A stretch of DNA of 41,124 nt, from positions 1 to 41,124 of IMG/VR virus record IMGVR_UViG_3300042450_000242. One strand, given 5' to 3'. Positions 22,046 to 37,261 of this stretch are shown one piece after another; within the stretch, counting starts at the first letter, position 1, and every line of letters begins with the position of its first letter. The notes beneath the pieces are model-generated. The model worked only from the letters and a program-made list of their open reading frames with translations. It did no database searches and was not told the DNA's origin. Origin of the DNA: a virus. The translations under genes were made by a program, and so were the position numbers.

Positions 22046-22912
22046 TCAATCAGCATCGCCACCGCAATACGATTTATAGAACTCAAGATCGTCTGTGCTT
22101 AGTGGGTTTCTAGCCGAGAATTCAATTACTTGACGACAGCAATACTTAATTCTTGTTTCAAATGTAGGGATAGAAAGTGGATCGCTTATTTGTGACTGGA
22201 AAAGGTCAACTTTATTTGTTTGGAATTCAAATGCAACAGATATTCTTGGATGCTCGGCTCTTGGATTTGATCTGCCTCCCCAGTGAATTGTAGCAAAGTT
22301 CCAAGCGATAGCACCACCAGCATTGCACGGTAAGCACCGTATATCCTGTAATGCAAATTCCCACGAATCTAAATCTGGCGTATTATATGTTGGGTCAAGA
22401 TTTGCCGGGACTATACTTATACAGCCGTTCAGAGCTGTTGCATCAGTTAACGCAATCCAAAGAGATAATCTAAGCGGGAGTCCGTCGCAATCTAAACCAT
22501 GTTCGTTGCAGTCTCCGTCTCTATGGGGGGAGAATCCCGCGTCGTTATTTAAGGGGTCTATTCTCCAAGCAAGAAATAATGGTCTGCGTGTATATTCGCT
22601 TCCAAGAATCCCGCATAACAATTTATGGTATCTTAAATATAAAATCCAGAACTCATCATAAATAAAAGCAAATGTTATCGGGATGTTTTCTTTATGTAGC
22701 CTTGTGATTACTTCTGCCATTTTATCGAGTGGCAACAAAAGTTGTTGTGGGGGGAGTTGGAAATATCCTTCACTTATTATTCTGTCTTTAAGACCTTCTA
22801 TTGCGTTGTCTGATATATCCAAGACCGACTGCCCATCTAAGAACTTACTATCATCAATATGTAGATCGGGAGAAAATTTGCGCCAGAAGTTTATATCGGT
22901 AATATGCCTCAT
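22046..22912 (-). CDS. PhyH-like 2OG-Fe(II) dioxygenase
   Basis: This 288-residue enzyme has the phytanoyl-CoA dioxygenase type iron site: His130 and Asp132 (SPHRDGD), His210 (ATIHWGGRS), and Arg223 (HPRISVAFEF) for 2-oxoglutarate. The core has the expected strand LSLWIALTDATALNGCISIVP. It would couple decarboxylation of 2-oxoglutarate to hydroxylation of an unknown substrate. It overlaps by one base the next upstream gene, another 2OG oxygenase, and ends the minus-strand operon. Confidence 0.85.
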   Translation of the reverse strand: MRHITDINFWRKFSPDLHIDDSKFLDGQSVLDISDNAIEGLKDRIISEGYFQLPPQQLLLPLDKMAEVITRLHKENIPITFAFIYDEFWILYLRYHKLLCGILGSEYTRRPLFLAWRIDPLNNDAGFSPHRDGDCNEHGLDCDGLPLRLSLWIALTDATALNGCISIVPANLDPTYNTPDLDSWEFALQDIRCLPCNAGGAIAWNFATIHWGGRSNPRAEHPRISVAFEFQTNKVDLFQSQISDPLSIPTFETRIKYCCRQVIEFSARNPLSTDDLEFYKSYCGGDAD

Positions 22913-23511
22913 TATTTCAACTCCAATTCAGTTAACATATCATCTTGTCCGAATATCCCTTTTACAAACGAATTAAATGACAAGCTAACTCTATCGTGGC
23001 GAGATAATTTAACAGGCACTTCATGTACCAAATCAGAAGGAAAGATTAGTAACGACAATTCCTCTACAGGAACGCGCCAAGACCCGGAATTAAAATCGTT
23101 AAACTCTTTTGGATGCAGATAAATCGCAGAGGTATTTGATCTCATAAACCTTATAGAATCTGTATCGTCAACTTTCAAATAAAACACCCCGGAAATAAAA
23201 CTATTTTGATGAGAGTGGCTTGGATGGTACTCGGCTTCTCTAGTTAAATTTACCCAAGATTGGGTTATATATGGCTCGATATCATTAATGGGGTTATATA
23301 TATTTTGCAAGTATCCGTTTAGCGCGGCAATAATAAACTCGCGTATGTCATGCAATTCCTTTATCGCCAATATGTTTGTATTGACGCTCGTAGAGTTCCC
23401 GGTATTTTTACGATACTCTAAACACGAAAAAACTTTACCTTCGGCACGGGTAAGTTTTCGAGGGAATTTTATATGGGCTATGGCTGTTGGAAAAATTGAA
23501 ATAACATTCAT
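22912..23511 (-). CDS. Putative 2OG-Fe(II) oxygenase (TIGR02466-like)
   Basis: I place the start at MNVISIFPTAIAHIKFP (199 residues), which fits the family and leaves 13 bases to the upstream gene; a longer frame would overlap that gene. Family features are NLTREAEYHPSHSHQNS (His96, His99, His101) followed by SGVFYLKVDD, then FPSDLVHEVP (His163) and RVSLSFN (Arg174). These give the metal site and 2-oxoglutarate contact. This family is frequent in aquatic phages and its substrates are unknown. Confidence 0.8.
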   Translation of the reverse strand: MNVISIFPTAIAHIKFPRKLTRAEGKVFSCLEYRKNTGNSTSVNTNILAIKELHDIREFIIAALNGYLQNIYNPINDIEPYITQSWVNLTREAEYHPSHSHQNSFISGVFYLKVDDTDSIRFMRSNTSAIYLHPKEFNDFNSGSWRVPVEELSLLIFPSDLVHEVPVKLSRHDRVSLSFNSFVKGIFGQDDMLTELELK

Positions 23512-23524
23512 TTTGATATTTAAG

Positions 23525-23953
23525 TTATTCACTTGGGGCTTCCGTATAAAGGCTAATGAACTCAGGACTGCCCAATAAATTTCTACCCGTGCGAACATAG
23601 TATTCAAGATTGTAGTGTCCAGATAAGGCCCACCTTAAAAGAAAATTGAGTGCGGCTATATCCATTTCTTTAGAAGTTTCTAGGGCAACAAAATATTTAA
23701 TTCCGTTTCTAATTTCTTCTGTCAAAAGTATTCCTGATTTAGATGGTTGCATCCACAAAGGGAATTCATCTTGCTTTAGCCACACGCATTTATATGCTGA
23801 ACACCCTTCCGGCCTATCTTTATATATGGAGCAGCACTTTTCCCCCAAAAAGTGACATGGACTTCCGGGGTAGTAAGCCCTGCCGTGTGCTATTCCATGT
23901 AACCAGCCCTCACAACAAGCCGTGCAATCACCGCATGATTTATTCGGCTGCAT
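23525..23953 (-). CDS. YkgJ-like cysteine-rich metal-binding protein
   Basis: This 142-residue protein opens with the cluster CGDCTACC (Cys7, 10, 13, 14), then more Cys at 33, 40, 41, 51 and 56 in the pattern CHFLGEKCCSIYKDRPEGCSAY, as in the YkgJ family, thought to bind zinc or an iron-sulfur centre. It lies between two 2OG-Fe(II) oxygenases and overlaps the next upstream gene, so it may supply iron or electrons, or modify the same target. This link is inferred from context only. Confidence 0.75.
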   Translation of the reverse strand: MQPNKSCGDCTACCEGWLHGIAHGRAYYPGSPCHFLGEKCCSIYKDRPEGCSAYKCVWLKQDEFPLWMQPSKSGILLTEEIRNGIKYFVALETSKEMDIAALNFLLRWALSGHYNLEYYVRTGRNLLGSPEFISLYTEAPSE

Positions 23954-24503
23954 ATTGAATTGCCAAAGAGAATCTATAAGATGGGGCTAGGATTGTTGGT
24001 GCTGAAATACAGTGTGGGATTGTCCCGTCCATTATAATCACCCTTCCGGGGACATAAGAAATGGTGCTTTCTATTTCTTTCATATTGTCATTAACTATTA
24101 GCAATCCACCGCCCCATTCTATTTTCCATTCTAAGTTTAAGTAATAAATTAATGTTTTGCACCGCAATGTATTGTCTATATGAATTCTGTTTTTATCATT
24201 CAAAGTTGATAAATTTACCCTCACCTGCACTATTTTATATCCATCAAAATGATTTTTTAATTGATTGGAGGATTCGTTTGATAGAAATTTTAACTCTATT
24301 AAATCCATGTCGGTAAAATGAGAAGCTAGGTTAAAATCACCCTTATTCTCAATGAGGGTGGTGTCGTTGCTAAGTGGGCTGTATTTGGAATGGAGTGCAA
24401 AATTATAAAAATGTAAACGTGCCGTTAAGTCATAAAGATTATCGAAGATAAAAATCTCTTTACCAGACGATGTTATTATTTTTTTGGGAGTAGTTGTGTT
24501 CAT
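23940..24503 (-). CDS. 2OG-Fe(II) oxygenase, prolyl-4-hydroxylase-like
   Basis: The gene starts at MNTTTPKKII, in ATGA overlap with the upstream hydrolase (187 residues). The double-stranded beta-helix motifs are clear: RIHIDN (His108, Asp110), WGGGLLIVND, PGRVIIMDGTIPHCIS (His164) and YRFSLAIQYA (Arg177). This order matches small P4H-type oxygenases that hydroxylate proteins or sugars. It is the first of three oxygenases of distinct families in a row. Confidence 0.85.
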   Translation of the reverse strand: MNTTTPKKIITSSGKEIFIFDNLYDLTARLHFYNFALHSKYSPLSNDTTLIENKGDFNLASHFTDMDLIELKFLSNESSNQLKNHFDGYKIVQVRVNLSTLNDKNRIHIDNTLRCKTLIYYLNLEWKIEWGGGLLIVNDNMKEIESTISYVPGRVIIMDGTIPHCISAPTILAPSYRFSLAIQYAAE

Positions 24504-24865
24504 AGATAGAAATGATGGTTGCCGCAAGTGCGGTAAAAGGGACGGCCCCATTTTGGGTTAACGCTTATAGAATGGAAGTGGGTTGCTTTGAATTCTCTAT
24601 CTGTATAAAGGGCGGTTCTAGCAGACTGCTCGGCTTGCTTCCACGCCACGCTCTCTATGTTTGGTCGATGCTCGGGCTTTAAAACTTCTCCGTTCATCTT
24701 CTCTGGCACCCACGAGAACTGATACGGAGCTAGAATAACTTTCTTTATATCCCCGTCTGTCATCCGATTCAAAACTACTCTAGCTATTTTTTCCTGACAG
24801 ATTACAGGCTCGCCGCGACCTTCAAAATACACCGTCATGGTTAACCACAATAGCATTTCAGCCAT
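24500..24865 (-). CDS. SleB-like cell wall hydrolase
   Basis: This 121-residue protein matches the short Hydrolase_2 (SleB) domain: TVYFEGRGEPVICQEKIA (Glu15 and Glu19 among conserved acids), VVLNRM, PYQFSW and ATHFHS. The enzymes cut peptidoglycan glycan strands. There is no signal peptide. A strong AGGAGG lies before the ATG and overlaps the stop of the small membrane protein gene upstream. It gives the phage a second wall-degrading enzyme away from the lysis cassette and on the opposite strand, perhaps early or accessory. Confidence 0.8.
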   Translation of the reverse strand: MAEMLLWLTMTVYFEGRGEPVICQEKIARVVLNRMTDGDIKKVILAPYQFSWVPEKMNGEVLKPEHRPNIESVAWKQAEQSARTALYTDREFKATHFHSISVNPKWGRPFYRTCGNHHFYL

Positions 24866-33019: not shown

Positions 33020-33292
33020 ATGACAGAAGAAGATATAAACGAGTTTATAAATGAGAATGGGTGGAGAGTTGCAAGGACGATGCCCAAGATCCCCCACGCC
33101 TACATTGTCAAGGACACCTGCACATCAGAAGAAAAGTTCGTGGACTTTGTAATCTTTATCCGAGCATACGGTGAACAGCGCAGATTTTGGAGTAAGACAT
33201 TCACCTACTGGGATCATGCTGGATACACTTATTGGAGCATGGGATTCCCTGTCAACGAAACAACCATAATCAACAGGGCTGTTCTTAAATGA
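33020..33292 (+). CDS. Small early protein, unknown
   Basis: This 90-residue protein has a compact alpha/beta pattern with many aromatic residues (YGEQRRFWSKTFTYWDHAGYTYWS). It is coupled by ATGA to the glycosyltransferase-like gene and leads into the candidate modification island. No family recognised. It could be a partner of the following gene. Confidence 0.6.
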   Translation: MTEEDINEFINENGWRVARTMPKIPHAYIVKDTCTSEEKFVDFVIFIRAYGEQRRFWSKTFTYWDHAGYTYWSMGFPVNETTIINRAVLK

Positions 33293-33915
33293 TCGCAGGG
33301 ATTATCGGAGTCCCGACCCGTATAGAGATGATAAAAGAATTGCGCGACATTATTTCACCTTCGGTTGATAGTGTAGATATATTTATGGATCATCAGTGGA
33401 AGGGACACTGGTGGAATCTATCGAGAGCGATTTGTGCTTTAACAGCGAAAGCCAAGCAAGGAGAGCCAGTCCTGCTTATGACGGATGACGCTATAACAGT
33501 ACCAGATTGGAGGGAGCGTTGGGAGATAATCCACGCAAAAGCGGGGAACACCATCTACTCTCTATTCTCCCGCCAAAGATTCTTATTCAACGATCAGAAT
33601 CTACTAAGGGGCTATATAACCAAGTGTCAACACCGTGGATTCTACGATCTGGCGTTTATCCTAATTGATAAGCCCAATTTTATACAGGATGTGCAGCACT
33701 GGTTTGATAATGGTGGGAAAGATACTCCTCCGGTTATACGCAGACAATCGCATTTAGATGTGGTGATGCAAGAGTATCTTATTGCACATAATATTCAGTG
33801 GACAATCAGCACCCCGACTATATTTGACCATCGTGACTCAAAAAGCACGATGGGTCATACTATTGGATTTAGTCCTTTTTACGTTGGCAGAAAAATTATC
33901 GGGGAGATTATATGA
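33289..33915 (+). CDS. Glycosyltransferase-like protein (GT-A type, putative)
   Basis: This 208-residue protein starts with a strand, GIIGVPTRIEMIKELRDI, followed by VLLMTDDAITVPDWRERWEII, which resembles the nucleotide-sugar-binding DxD region and neighbouring helix of GT-A glycosyltransferases seen in other phages. Near the C-terminus TPTIFDHRDSKSTMGH matches the HxxxS-like end of those proteins. It overlaps the methyltransferase gene by ATGA. If active, the acceptor could be modified DNA, protein or cell surface; the place beside DNA-modifying enzymes suggests DNA, by inference. Confidence 0.6.
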   Translation: MIAGIIGVPTRIEMIKELRDIISPSVDSVDIFMDHQWKGHWWNLSRAICALTAKAKQGEPVLLMTDDAITVPDWRERWEIIHAKAGNTIYSLFSRQRFLFNDQNLLRGYITKCQHRGFYDLAFILIDKPNFIQDVQHWFDNGGKDTPPVIRRQSHLDVVMQEYLIAHNIQWTISTPTIFDHRDSKSTMGHTIGFSPFYVGRKIIGEII

Positions 33916-34472
33916 AATACCATTCCGCACTTCACAAGCCGAATAACTATCCGTTGGTTGGGGCCATCCAGTTAGGAAACTCATTTGCATTTGCACACGA
34001 TATAATGAGGAGGGACGTTCCATGCGACTACAACGATTGTGATATTTTCTATATGGAACCTCCGTGGATTGATGGTTTCAAGATATTTGAAGATAGGGCT
34101 AATATCCCGCACGAACGCACCTATGAAGATTTAATGTTGGGAGTGTCTAAGTTTATTTTTTTGGGCAAGCCAGCGGTAATTATTACAGGAAAAAAGGGGC
34201 TAAAGTACCTACCCAAGCCGGATGCAGAGGCCGGGACAATATTAAATGGGGCAGCGGCTAGGGTGGTGATGTACGGGACTACAGTGACTAATGTTGGTAA
34301 TTGCATGACTATATTAGATGAGTTGGCTGAAAGGTATTTTAGAGTGGGTGATCCATGCTGCGGATTCGGAAGAACAGCAAAGGCATTTAAGTTGGCTGGC
34401 AAAGACTTTGTGGTCAGCGACTACAATCAGGAATGTATTGGTTATATTGCTCAGGAGTATTACGGCTGGTGA
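33912..34472 (+). CDS. Small permuted DNA methyltransferase-like protein
   Basis: This 186-residue protein has a catalytic-type motif EPPW (residues 49-52, in place of the common D/N-PPW) before the SAM-binding motif GDPCCGFGRT (146-155) and an acidic SAM-ribose residue (VVSDYNQE, Asp170). This order is that of circularly permuted (beta-class) amino methyltransferases. It is unusually short: no clear target recognition domain. The first residue of the D/N-PPW motif is Glu, which could change activity or target. It is coupled by GTGA overlap to the PP-loop enzyme gene. Confidence 0.75.
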   Translation: MKYHSALHKPNNYPLVGAIQLGNSFAFAHDIMRRDVPCDYNDCDIFYMEPPWIDGFKIFEDRANIPHERTYEDLMLGVSKFIFLGKPAVIITGKKGLKYLPKPDAEAGTILNGAAARVVMYGTTVTNVGNCMTILDELAERYFRVGDPCCGFGRTAKAFKLAGKDFVVSDYNQECIGYIAQEYYGW

Positions 34473-35602
34473 AAATATATCTAAAAGACAATGTGTTTGA
34501 CAAGTCGCTGGAACGGATGCGATGGGTATTTGATGAGTTCCCGAATGTTGTGGTCGGCGTATCGGGAGGGAAGGACAGCACAGTAGTATTCAATCTTGCC
34601 ATGATAGTAGCAAGGGAGAAGGGTAGGTTGCCGCTGAAGTGCCTATTTCTGGATCAGGAGGCGGAGTGGGAGGCGACTATTGATACCATTCGGCTGATTA
34701 TGGAACATCCTGACGTTGACCCATATTGGCTACAAATGCCGCTTCAGCTATTTAATGCTACAAGCACAATAGATCACTGGTTGATGTGTTGGGACGAGAA
34801 GGAAGAAGCGAGATGGATGCGTCCGAGGGAGTCTTATAGTATTAAAGAGAACGTCTATGGAACAATGAGGTTTGTGGAGTTATTCACAGCCGTTTTGCAA
34901 AAAGAGTTCCCAGATACAAAGACTTGCTACATTGCTGGTGTCAGGGCGCAAGAGTCACCAACTAGGGCTATGGGGATGACTAACGACCTCACCTATAAAG
35001 ACGCAACGTGGGGGAAGGCGCTGGATAAGTCTCTTGAGCATTACACTCTCTATCCTATCTATGACTGGTCTTATATGGATGTATGGAAGGCGATCCATGA
35101 TAACCAATGGTATTACAACAAGATATATGACGCGCAGTACAGCTACGGGGTTGGGCTGCGAAACATGAGGGTGTCAAACGTCCACCATGAAATTGCTGTT
35201 GGGGCGTTGTTTTATATGCAGGAGCTTGAGCCTGAGACCTATCAGAGATTGACACAGAGGATTGCTGGCATAGATATGGCTGGAAAGATGGGGGATGACG
35301 ATTACTTCCCAAAAGAGTTGCCTTTTATGTTCGCATCATGGAGGGAGTACAGAGATTACTTATTGGATAAGTTAATAGAGAAGCCCGACTGGAACGCTAT
35401 ATTCAAAAAGAGGTTTATCAAGCACGATGAGGTATATGGAGATGAGCTAGGGGATGTATTATTCAAGGTACATATTAAAGCCATTTTGACTAACGATTGG
35501 GAGCTTGTAAGAATCGAGAACTTCGAACGCTACCCCAAACACATAACACTTAAACGACGACGGAAGGCGGAAAAAGATGCTAGAGATACAGCGCAAGTTT
35601 GA
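34469..35602 (+). CDS. DUF3440 / IbrA-like PP-loop (PAPS reductase family) protein
   Basis: I place the start at GTG 34469, overlapping the methyltransferase stop, giving 377 residues. The PP-loop SGGKDST (32-38) is clear and binds ATP phosphates. The downstream FLDQEAEWEATID, then AGVRAQESPTRAMGM and YPIYDWSYMDVWKAI match the DUF3440/IbrA group of the PAPS reductase superfamily, related to DndC. IbrA is encoded with the ParB-like IbrB in bacteria, and the same pair is found here. The chemistry may be adenylation or sulfur transfer; unproven. Confidence 0.85.
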   Translation: MKIYLKDNVFDKSLERMRWVFDEFPNVVVGVSGGKDSTVVFNLAMIVAREKGRLPLKCLFLDQEAEWEATIDTIRLIMEHPDVDPYWLQMPLQLFNATSTIDHWLMCWDEKEEARWMRPRESYSIKENVYGTMRFVELFTAVLQKEFPDTKTCYIAGVRAQESPTRAMGMTNDLTYKDATWGKALDKSLEHYTLYPIYDWSYMDVWKAIHDNQWYYNKIYDAQYSYGVGLRNMRVSNVHHEIAVGALFYMQELEPETYQRLTQRIAGIDMAGKMGDDDYFPKELPFMFASWREYRDYLLDKLIEKPDWNAIFKKRFIKHDEVYGDELGDVLFKVHIKAILTNDWELVRIENFERYPKHITLKRRRKAEKDARDTAQV

Positions 35603-36242
35603 CGAGCTTCCAACAGATTTAGCTAAGATTCTGTATATAGAGGAAATCAAGGCTATGTTGCACCAAATCAGCCCATTGAGGGATCAACCTGTTAACCATG
35701 TTCGGTGGGTTCCTATAGAGCAAGTTGAGGCCAATGGCTACAATCCCAACTCTGTTGCCAAGAATGAAATGCGGTTGCTATATGTGTCCATAAGCCACGA
35801 TGGATATACTCAGCCAATCGTTGTAATACGAGACGAAGGGCGGGATAAGTACGTTATAGTCGATGGATTCCACAGATATTCCATTATGCGTCTGAATAAG
35901 GACATATATGACTTGAATAAGGGATTGATCCCAGTGGTTGTAATAGACAAGTCTATTAATGATCGGATGGCTTCGACGGTCAGGCATAATAGAGCGAGAG
36001 GTAAGCATAGCGTCTCAGGCATGGCGAACATGGTATTTCAGATGTTAGATAATGGTTGGGAGAATGAGGCTATATGCGCGGAACTAGGAATAGAGCCGGA
36101 TGAGTTGATCCGACTGAAGCACGTTACAGGTTTCTCAAAGTTATTTGAGAATGTGGATTATCTCCGTTCGTGGGAGACAAAGAGACAGATCGAATTACGA
36201 ATTGCCTACAATAAAGGACAAAATGGAAACGACCCTATTTAA
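35577..36242 (+). CDS. ParB-like protein 1 (IbrB-like)
   Basis: This 221-residue protein begins with a helical lead-in (about 1-40), then a ParB/sulfiredoxin-fold core: VRWVPIEQVEANGYNPNSV, GYTQPIVVI and YVIVDGFHRYSIMRL (GxHR motif), and a helical DNA-binding-like C-terminus (AICAELGIEPDELIRLKHVTG). It overlaps the DUF3440 gene by 26 bases and forms the known IbrA-IbrB pair with it. ParB-type domains of this kind can bind or hydrolyse CTP or ATP. Substrate unknown. Confidence 0.83.
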   Translation: MLEIQRKFDELPTDLAKILYIEEIKAMLHQISPLRDQPVNHVRWVPIEQVEANGYNPNSVAKNEMRLLYVSISHDGYTQPIVVIRDEGRDKYVIVDGFHRYSIMRLNKDIYDLNKGLIPVVVIDKSINDRMASTVRHNRARGKHSVSGMANMVFQMLDNGWENEAICAELGIEPDELIRLKHVTGFSKLFENVDYLRSWETKRQIELRIAYNKGQNGNDPI

Positions 36243-36798
36243 TATCGCAGAAATCAAGCCTTACTGGCGCAACCCGAGGCATAACGAGGAGGCTGTTGGT
36301 GCTGTCATGCAGTCAATCCGTGATTATGGATTCAATCAGCCATTGATTATTGACGCTGAGAACGTGATTATAGCGGGGCATACTCGATATAGAGCATTGC
36401 AAAGGTTAGGGGTAACAGAGATTCCATGTATTGTTAAGGGCGACCTAACGGCGCAACAGGCAAAGGAGTACAGAATTGCCGACAATAAAACCAGCGAGCT
36501 ATCCTCATGGGATATGGATAGGTTAATACCTGAGCTTCGGGAGATCGAGTCTATAGTGGATATGAGCATTTACTTCCCGACCATTGACCTATCAGAGTTA
36601 CTCCAACAAACAGCGGGGGCATTGAACTTTAAGAACCCTACTGAATTAGCTATCGGCAAGGTCGAGCATAAGCTGGAAGCCCAGATGACAGACAAGAATA
36701 GAGAGCTACATTCTGCTTATGTGGAGGTAGCCTGTCCTCATTGCGGTGAAGCCTTCCATGTAGACCGCAACGATATAGCCAATCAGCACATTAAATAG
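36223..36798 (+). CDS. ParB-like nuclease-domain protein 2 with C-terminal zinc ribbon
   Basis: I set the start at METTLFNIAEIKPYWRNPRH (191 residues), behind AAAGGA and overlapping the previous gene by 20 bases. The ParB core is typical of the DNA-methylase-associated type: GFNQPLIIDAENVIIAGHTRY (longest run cut here), then EIPCIVK and KEYRIADNKTSELSSWD. A C-terminal CPHCGEAFHV suggests a zinc-binding end. Such proteins are normally linked to phage methyltransferases. It may direct the modification enzymes to DNA or to packaging sites. Confidence 0.85.
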   Translation: METTLFNIAEIKPYWRNPRHNEEAVGAVMQSIRDYGFNQPLIIDAENVIIAGHTRYRALQRLGVTEIPCIVKGDLTAQQAKEYRIADNKTSELSSWDMDRLIPELREIESIVDMSIYFPTIDLSELLQQTAGALNFKNPTELAIGKVEHKLEAQMTDKNRELHSAYVEVACPHCGEAFHVDRNDIANQHIK

Positions 36799-36805
36799 AG
36801 AAGCG

Positions 36806-37261
36806 ATGCCTAGCGTACCCACCCAGACCAAGTGCGCTGAGTTAGGCTGCAAGAATGAGAGGGCTAATACATATAGCTATTGCGTGGAGCATGGTGGTGT
36901 AGCTCTCGCACTAACAGATGAGAGAAGGAGCGCCAACGCTAAGTATAATACGTCAGCTTGGAATTCAATACGACGTAGGCAGTTATCTATGCAGCCCCTA
37001 TGCCAAGCCTGTCTACTCTCAGGCCATGTGTGTATGGCTAACCATGTGGATCATGTGTTCTCATGGAGAGGGCTAGACCCAAAGGCTTTCATCTATAATA
37101 TATTCCAAAGCCTATGCCATGAACACCATTCGTTCAAGACAGGGCTTGAGCGCAAGGGGATATATAGGCACTTCACTAAGGACAAGGTAATAGATTATAA
37201 TTTAAGTGAGTGGGCATCCACCCTTTCTATTACAGACCACGCAAGCTCGAACCTGATTTAG
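36806..37261 (+). CDS. HNH endonuclease upstream of the terminase genes
   Basis: This 151-residue protein has two Cys pairs (CAELGCKNE and CQACLLSGHVC), then HVDHVFSWRG and LCHEHHSFKT, the standard zinc-binding HNH fold of phage endonucleases. HNH nucleases next to TerS and TerL stimulate DNA cutting in packaging in HK97-type phages. It is probably part of the packaging machine, with additional nuclease functions possible. Confidence 0.88.
   Translation: MPSVPTQTKCAELGCKNERANTYSYCVEHGGVALALTDERRSANAKYNTSAWNSIRRRQLSMQPLCQACLLSGHVCMANHVDHVFSWRGLDPKAFIYNIFQSLCHEHHSFKTGLERKGIYRHFTKDKVIDYNLSEWASTLSITDHASSNLI

What the first reader, a model, noticed from the sequence alone, without database searches (positions are those of the whole stretch)
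33289..36798. Candidate DNA-modification or anti-defence island: GT-like, permuted methyltransferase, IbrA/IbrB pair and second ParB
Five coupled genes, all overlapping, carry a GT-A-like protein with a DxD-like segment, a 186-residue methyltransferase with EPPW before GDPCCGFG, a PP-loop SGGKDST enzyme of the DUF3440/IbrA type, an IbrB-like ParB protein and a second methylase-type ParB protein. The overlaps and shared direction are seen in the sequence. That DUF3440 pairs with ParB as IbrA/IbrB, and that PP-loop enzymes related to DndC act in sulfur chemistry on DNA, is known. That the five act as one pathway making a hypermodified or marked base is inference. The set sits between early genes and packaging, where modification could be coupled to host take-over or to packaging.
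Basis: partly seen in the sequence, partly recalled or inferred. Interest (0 to 1): 0.85.

Follow-up and report, generated by a model that had tools for sequence, protein, structure and literature searches.

The report
Swappable phage DNA-modification gene cassette
Next to its DNA-packaging genes this freshwater phage carries six linked genes that recur as a unit in well over a hundred virus fragments, with a fixed core and exchangeable sugar-, methyl- or acetyl-adding enzymes; it most likely decorates the phage's own DNA to escape host defences, and one of its small domains is also found fused to host enzymes that cut modified DNA.

Summary
They are 'up' (33020), a GT-A-fold protein (33289), a permuted SAM-binding protein (33912), a PP-loop/DUF3440 enzyme (34469), ParB1 (35577) and ParB2 (36223). 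The related cultured phage P19250A lacks them.

Searches seeded from three different genes keep recovering the same module. All 20 other viral loci found from the methyltransferase carry the PP-loop. Of 77 viral loci found from 'up', 75 carry the PP-loop and 70 the PP-loop plus ParB1, often beside terminase. PP-loop and ParB1 diverge together (rho 0.80). Between 'up' and the PP-loop sits an exchangeable slot: glycosyltransferases, GNAT acyltransferases, methyltransferases of several types, or a 2OG-oxygenase-like protein. 47 of 49 loci with 'up' have such an enzyme, against 16 of 48 without it. The window's sister phages keep the core but carry other slot enzymes.

In Bacteroidota, 'up' is fused or adjacent to GmrSD_N (type IV, modification-dependent) restriction proteins, or fused to a PD-(D/E)XK nuclease. 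This points to a DNA modification.

Corrections: the PP-loop lacks conserved cysteines, so sulfur chemistry is not supported; the methyltransferase's clade has a degenerate catalytic tetrad. The modified base and every activity remain unshown.

The parts
33020..33292 (+). 'up': 90-aa alpha+beta protein, partner or reader domain of the cassette; fused to methyltransferases in phages and to GmrSD_N or PD-(D/E)XK nucleases in Bacteroidota
   Evidence: HMM family recurring in the cassettes; AF2 pLDDT 94.7, no PDB match at E<=0.001, one BFVD match TM 0.89; fusions; Pfam Gp45_2 only at E 0.019, below cut-off
33289..33915 (+). GT-A-fold glycosyltransferase, 208 aa; tailoring enzyme in the variable slot
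   Evidence: phrog_854 glucosyltransferase 7.7e-5, matched by 15 of 16 aligned relatives; AF2 pLDDT 87.5 and Foldseek KfiA E 4.7e-7 prob 1.00; D67, G108, P176, H181, S186 invariant
33912..34472 (+). MT-A: permuted (motif IV before motif I) SAM-binding methyltransferase homologue, 186 aa, with EPPW in place of DPPW
   Evidence: Homologous to MT-B, which is DPPW in 24 of 24; tetrad degenerate across the MT-A clade while GD[FP]xCGxG and SDxNxxC are conserved
34469..35602 (+). PP-loop ATP pyrophosphatase-type enzyme, PAPS_reduct + DUF3440 (IbrA type); core. ORF also open from ATG 34433
   Evidence: Pfam, both over cut-off; phrog_2302 2.9e-80; start re-assigned; no conserved Cys; PDB profile hits FAD synthase, PAPS reductase, CysD
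35577..36242 (+). ParB1 (IbrB type), near-constant partner of the PP-loop enzyme; VDGFHR and NDRMASTxRHNRARG conserved
   Evidence: ParB_N 2.2e-6 over cut-off; phrog_2159 1.2e-71; in 93 of 97 PP-loop loci; co-diverges with PP rho 0.80; alignment
36223..36798 (+). ParB2, methylase-type ParB with C-terminal CPHC tail (191 aa from ATG 36223)
   Evidence: ParB_N 1.8e-9; phrog_620 6.2e-47 and ParB-MTase fusion family phrog_498 1.2e-35; PADLOC MTase_II 2.7e-20; in 65 of 97 PP-loop loci; alignment

Best explanation
A modular phage DNA-hypermodification cassette, acting on the phage's own DNA late in infection, just before packaging. Core: the PP-loop enzyme with its near-constant partner ParB1, assisted on DNA by ParB2. 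Proposed mechanism: ParB1 and ParB2 engage DNA in a nucleotide-dependent way. The PP-loop enzyme uses ATP to adenylate a base oxygen (as TilS, CysD and FAD synthase activate their substrates), and displacement of AMP leaves a base with a new acceptor group. 'up' positions or reads that intermediate. Tailoring enzymes then cap it: here a sugar by the GT-A enzyme, plus a SAM-dependent or structural role for MT-A; in other phages methyl, acyl or oxidised groups instead. Phages swap the cap while keeping the core, which would change the epitope seen by modification-dependent restriction enzymes, some of which carry the same 'up' domain. Shown here: gene content, linkage, exchange of slot enzymes, GT-A fold prediction, absence of conserved Cys, up-nuclease fusions. 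Inferred: that DNA is the substrate, the adenylation chemistry, the order of steps, the timing, the anti-restriction benefit.
For: Module linkage from three seeds. Variable slot of GT-A, GT2 (Pfam 1.8e-6), GNAT (4.2e-6), DNA-methylase-type MT-B (N6_N4_Mtase 2.4e-4), class I MTases (3.5e-10) and a 2OG-like protein. 47/49 versus 16/48 association of 'up' with tailoring enzymes, Fisher p 1.7e-11. Sister phages L040 and L041 (TerL 80% and 79%) share PP (70%) and ParB1 (76-77%) but have a GT of another subfamily (17-18%) and no MT-A; the window's GT is 50% identical to that of L065, where no window terminase match was found. GT-A fold. 'up' fused to GmrSD_N (1.6e-29, 1.6e-20) and PDDEXK_4 (1.4e-16); 22 of 57 cellular 'up' loci hold a GmrSD_N-type ORF although such genomes have only 2-6 of these domains per 2.4-4.6 Mb. 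GmrSD enzymes cleave modified cytosine DNA, glucosylated best (PMC12409352). ParB-superfamily partners of DNA-modifying enzymes are known: DndB, and DpdB with DpdA (PMC10853773, PMC12839542).
Against: No modified nucleoside has been shown for any carrier, and no DNA substrate is proven. The only described role of the pair (IbrA/IbrB) is as co-activators of prophage gene expression. MT-A may be inactive. Many PP-loop/ParB1 loci (34 of 97) have no recognised tailoring enzyme, so the core may have a separate function. 'up' next to GmrSD_N could reflect partnership with ParB-fold domains in general rather than recognition of a modified base. No enzyme making a modified nucleotide precursor was identified among the proteins scanned, so the acceptor is unknown.
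Confidence: 0.66

Rival explanations
1. The PP-loop/ParB1 pair is a regulator or host-takeover factor (as IbrA/IbrB is described) that changes host or phage transcription; the transferases modify a host target such as RNA polymerase.
For: Public annotation of relatives as 'co-activator of prophage gene expression' IbrA/IbrB. Position between early genes and packaging. 34 of 97 loci have no recognised tailoring enzyme.
Against: Does not predict glyco-, acetyl-, methyl- and oxidative enzymes interchangeable in one slot, nor 'up' fused to modification-dependent nuclease domains.
Confidence: 0.12
2. The set modifies RNA (tRNA or mRNA), in the manner of TilS or TtcA followed by tailoring, to favour phage translation.
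For: PP-loop enzymes are classic tRNA-modifying enzymes (own knowledge); tailoring transferases would fit hypermodified nucleosides.
Against: Two ParB-family proteins, one of the kind fused to DNA methyltransferases (phrog_498); linkage to terminase; 'up' in DNA-restriction proteins.
Confidence: 0.08
3. The tailoring enzymes glycosylate or acylate virion proteins; the PP-loop/ParB pair is separate and merely neighbouring.
For: Phage GTs that modify capsid and tail proteins are known (own knowledge); the best PDB matches of the GT are sugar-polymer or protein-glycan enzymes.
Against: 'up' loci almost always carry the PP-loop (75 of 77). MT-B is a DNA-methylase-type enzyme. A type IV restriction link is not expected.
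Confidence: 0.07
4. DNA phosphorothioation or another sulfur modification, as the first reader suggested by analogy with DndC.
For: PAPS_reduct superfamily; weak DndC similarity (6.7e-7 NCBIfam, 6.8e-8 PADLOC).
Against: DndC model 28.5 bits against cut-off 290. No cysteine column above 59% in 159 sequences. No DndD/DndE/SspB/SspC partner among the families scanned. Sugar, acetyl and methyl caps do not fit a backbone sulfur.
Confidence: 0.05

Closest known systems
IbrA/IbrB (DUF3440 PP-loop + ParB) pair
   Same: Same two families, adjacent and co-diverging
   Different: Described only as prophage-gene co-activators; here embedded in a cassette with ParB2, 'up' and exchangeable transferases
DndC/DndB and SspD/BrxP phosphorothioation enzymes
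   Same: PAPS-reductase-like PP-loop enzyme with a ParB-superfamily partner (DndB)
   Different: No conserved cysteines, far below DndC cut-off, no DndD/E or SspB/C found, tailoring transferases instead
DpdA/DpdB 7-deazaguanine DNA insertion
   Same: DNA-modifying enzyme assisted by a ParB-like ATPase (PMC12839542)
   Different: PP-loop enzyme instead of a TGT-type transglycosylase; no DpdA-like family among the window proteins scanned
T4-type glucosyl-hmC and other phage hypermodified-base pathways
   Same: Post-replicative GT tailoring of phage DNA that blocks restriction and is countered by GmrSD-type enzymes (PMC12409352, PMC13216743)
   Different: No T4-type GT or hydroxymethylase identified; a small GT of the phrog_854 family, and a PP-loop/ParB core
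GmrSD-family type IV restriction enzymes (BrxU)
   Same: The 'up' domain of the cassette occurs in-frame with GmrSD_N in Bacteroidota
   Different: The phage protein has no nuclease or GmrSD domain; only 'up' is shared
Microbacterium phage Hendrix cassette (genes 153-158 and 1-5)
   Same: GT-like gp154, GT gp155, up+MTase gp156, N-acyltransferase gp157, PP-loop gp158, ParB x3, gp4, terminase
   Different: Actinobacterial phage with other slot enzymes; linear record opened inside the cassette, so the linkage is easy to miss

Membership tests
IbrA / DUF3440 PAPS_reduct enzymes | PAPS_reduct and DUF3440 models over the curated cut-off | tested here: met
   59.8 bits (cut-off 22.5) and 28.6 bits (cut-off 25)
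IbrA / DUF3440 PAPS_reduct enzymes | Paired with an IbrB-type ParB | tested here: met
   Adjacent in window; ParB1 in 93 of 97 loci, rho 0.80
IbrA / DUF3440 PAPS_reduct enzymes | Activates prophage gene expression | not testable with these tools
   No expression data
PAPS reductase (CysH) | Conserved redox-active cysteine | tested here: not met
   No conserved Cys column in 159 relatives; highest 59%; cysH models far below cut-off
DndC / SspD phosphorothioation sulfurtransferase | Model score over cut-off and conserved cysteines | tested here: not met
   28.5 bits against 290.4; no conserved Cys
GT-A glycosyltransferase | GT-A fold | tested here: met
   AF2 pLDDT 87.5; Foldseek prob 1.00 to KfiA and other GT-A enzymes, 73 matches at E<=0.001; the same fold class includes nucleotidyltransferases
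GT-A glycosyltransferase | Metal-binding DxD | tested here: inconclusive
   DD at 66-67, D67 invariant; not the classical DxD spacing
GT-A glycosyltransferase | Sugar transfer to a defined acceptor | not testable with these tools
   Needs biochemistry
Permuted (beta-class) DNA amino-methyltransferase | Motif IV before motif I | tested here: met
   EPPW 49-52 before GDPCCGFG 146-153; homologous to MT-B
Permuted (beta-class) DNA amino-methyltransferase | Catalytic (D/N/S)PP(Y/F/W) | tested here: not met
   EPPW in window; clade holds EIPW, DLPW, EPSW, EIAW, EVPW, APPW and others, intact in only a few members
Chromosome- or plasmid-partition ParB | Gene next to parA and partition function | not tested
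   ParB_N domain met; no ParA family named for the neighbouring genes that were scanned, but not every window gene was scanned
GmrSD type IV restriction | GmrSD_N and nuclease domain | tested here: not met
   Only 'up' is shared; no window cassette protein matches GmrSD_N
Phage DNA hypermodification pathway | Modified nucleosides in virion DNA that depend on the genes | not testable with these tools
   Needs mass spectrometry

The most novel reading that the evidence does not exclude
A new class of phage DNA hypermodification: a PP-loop/ParB core activates a base by adenylation, and an exchangeable set of transferases caps it with sugar, acyl, methyl or oxidised groups. The 'up' domain reads this chemistry, and bacteria have captured it as the recognition module of type IV restriction enzymes, so that one domain marks both sides of the arms race.
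Probability: 0.35. Interest if true: 0.93.

Novelty: new variant of a known kind. Interest (0 to 1): 0.8.

Why it matters
Genes annotated as 'PAPS reductase' and 'ParB' in many phages are often read as sulfur metabolism or partition genes. The linkage here argues instead for one module with exchangeable caps, which would explain them together and predict a family of undiscovered modified bases. The 'up' domain gives a direct handle: it links the phage module to restriction-type proteins in Bacteroidota, so recognition of the mark can be tested biochemically. Sugar- or acyl-capped DNA that resists restriction enzymes also affects sequencing, phage engineering and nuclease discovery.

Tried and rejected
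Single-protein searches with the GT, MTase and 'up' proteins found nothing in 50,697 phage records and only the window's own twin contig in viral contigs for GT and MTase; alignments were needed. The full 'up' alignment A6 was too divergent to scan with; subset A8 worked. Pfam and NCBIfam gave nothing for GT, MT-A and 'up' over cut-off. PADLOC gave only weak DndC and MTase_II hits. 'up' has no PDB relative. No Rfam hit or tRNA in the window. GC content does not mark the cassette as foreign. Literature: no held paper describes this combination; IbrA/IbrB papers found list the genes only; the 2013 paper on predicted complex DNA-base modification systems is not held. Considered and dropped: MT-A as an obligate METTL14-like partner of MT-B, because MT-A occurs without MT-B in the window and elsewhere; PAPS reduction and phosphorothioation (no conserved Cys).
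Full report
Setting. The window is one 41,124-base virus record. Its closest named relative is Methylophilaceae phage P19250A: terminase 70%, portal 61%, with capsid and tail genes collinear. P19250A has no match to 33020-36798, while the HNH gene at 36806 and the terminase genes that follow are conserved. A second contig (IMGVR_UViG_3300042479_000309) repeats the region at 99.99%.

Genes. The five reported ORFs are real and overlapping. The PP-loop gene more likely starts at GTG 34469 (GTGA overlap, AGGAG upstream) and ParB2 at ATG 36223. The 90-residue gene just upstream, 33020-33292, overlaps the GT gene by 4 nt and proved to be a regular member.

Linkage. A locus from an unrelated phage (L005, other terminase) showed the same block: up, MT-A, a second methyltransferase (MT-B), PP-loop, ParB1, ParB2, HNH, terminase. 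Scanning 2.9 million viral contigs with a three-sequence MTase alignment gave 20 further loci; all 20 have the PP-loop next door. Scanning with a five-sequence PP-loop alignment gave 80 loci. After removal of known duplicates, 97 PP-loop loci hold ParB1 in 93, ParB2 in 65 and 'up' in 49. Scanning from 'up' gave 77 further locus records, of which 75 have the PP-loop, 70 PP-loop plus ParB1, 68 ParB2, 46 a terminase large subunit of one tested cluster. Some records in these scans are the same contigs as earlier ones, so the counts are not fully independent.

Exchangeable slot. Between 'up' and the PP-loop lie GT-A proteins, GT2-type glycosyltransferases, GNAT acyltransferases, MT-A, MT-B, class I methyltransferases (some fused to 'up'), or a 2OG-like protein recognised only by its HxD...H pattern. 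47 of 49 loci with 'up' have at least one recognised tailoring enzyme, against 16 of 48 without (Fisher p 1.7e-11). Pairwise identities of PP-loop and ParB1 correlate at rho 0.80; PP-loop against GT, MT-A and GNAT at 0.29, 0.15 and 0.51; pairs are not independent. The window's sister phages L040 and L041 (TerL 80% and 79%) share PP-loop (70%), ParB1 (76-77%) and ParB2 (64-70%). Their GT is another subfamily (17-18% to the window's) and they lack MT-A, while the window's GT is 50% identical to that of L065, whose locus gave no match to the window's terminase. The core stays, the caps move. Outside this set, Flavobacterium, Streptococcus and Lactobacillus phages carry an SNF2-type helicase with PP-loop and ParB1, so the core may have more than one use.

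Individual proteins. GT (33289): AF2 pLDDT 87.5; PDB matches are GT-A-fold enzymes led by KfiA, prob 1.00; phrog_854 glucosyltransferase matches 15 of 16 aligned relatives. MT-A (33912): two clear clades exist; MT-B keeps DPPW in 24 of 24, whereas MT-A has EPPW, EIPW, DLPW, EPSW, EIAW, EVPW, APPW and others, with the SAM-motif regions conserved. It is either an altered enzyme or a structural SAM-binding partner. PP-loop: catalytic SGGKDS and R, D, W positions are near invariant in 159 sequences, but no cysteine is; nearest PDB profile hits are FAD synthase, PAPS reductase and CysD. This favours adenylyl chemistry over sulfur transfer (inference). ParB1 has VDGFHR and NDRMASTxRHNRARG nearly invariant. 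ParB2 belongs to the ParB type found N-terminal to DNA methyltransferases.

The 'up' domain. AF2 pLDDT 94.7, no PDB match, one viral model match. In 58 bacterial loci, mostly Prevotella and relatives plus some Alpha- and Gammaproteobacteria, it is rarely with a PP-loop (5 of 58). Instead it is fused to GmrSD_N (L128, L152; close copies L129, L156, L161), to a PD-(D/E)XK nuclease (L160, L125) or to a class I methyltransferase. 22 of 57 such loci hold a GmrSD_N-type ORF, against 2-6 GmrSD_N domains per whole genome. GmrSD enzymes cut modified cytosine DNA, glucosylated best (PMC12409352). The economical reading is that 'up' deals with modified DNA on both sides. A weaker reading is that it partners ParB-fold domains.

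Mechanism. See Best explanation; activities and substrate are inferred. Known parallels for a ParB-family helper of a DNA-modifying enzyme are DndB and DpdB.

Verdict. A real, widespread module, not described in the held literature. DNA modification is the most likely function (0.66); sulfur chemistry is unlikely. A nucleoside analysis of a cultured carrier such as Microbacterium phage Hendrix, which has the full set around its linear record's ends, would decide.

Noticed in passing
window 22046-24551, minus strand: Three 2OG-Fe(II) oxygenase genes (PhyH 1.3e-6, 2OG-FeII_Oxy_5 9.4e-19, 2OG-FeII_Oxy_3 1.4e-6), about 9 kb from the cassette on the other strand; could act on DNA, virion or host protein.
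   Followed up: no
L009, L010, L013, L018, L092, L095, L098, L100: In Flavobacterium, Streptococcus, Lactobacillus and other phages the PP-loop/ParB1 pair stands with an SNF2-type helicase (SNF2-rel_dom 1.9e-12) instead of tailoring enzymes: possibly a second system built on the same core.
   Followed up: partly
L032 (5980-10872), L089, L090, L091, L093, L094, L099: A ~250-aa family (cluster c5; the one member scanned has no Pfam or PHROG match) sits directly before the PP-loop; some of these loci carry two PP-loop genes.
   Followed up: no
L109-L112, L116, L119: Another unassigned ~260-aa family (cluster c10; weak AraC_binding/cupin-like hit) directly before the PP-loop.
   Followed up: no
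L044, L052, L053, L056, L064, L073 (cluster c8): Slot protein with HTDPRYPRY...DTHSPHQ pattern resembling a 2OG-Fe(II) oxygenase but with no Pfam or PHROG hit in the members scanned.
   Followed up: partly
L122-L161 (Bacteroidota genomes): 'up' often lies near WYL-like regulators, HIRAN-like proteins and paired GmrSD_N proteins: probable uncharacterised defence islands (names of the first two judged by eye from sequence).
   Followed up: partly
L123, L124, L146, L189, L199, L202: Ignavibacteria/Kapaibacteria/Bacteroidetes MAG contigs and viral contigs share a distinct order: class I methyltransferase, PP-loop, up, DPPW methyltransferase, ParB1.
   Followed up: no
L008 and L020 (Microbacterium phage Hendrix): The linearised record is opened between the PP-loop gene (158) and the ParB genes (1-3), hiding the cassette's continuity.
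   Followed up: yes
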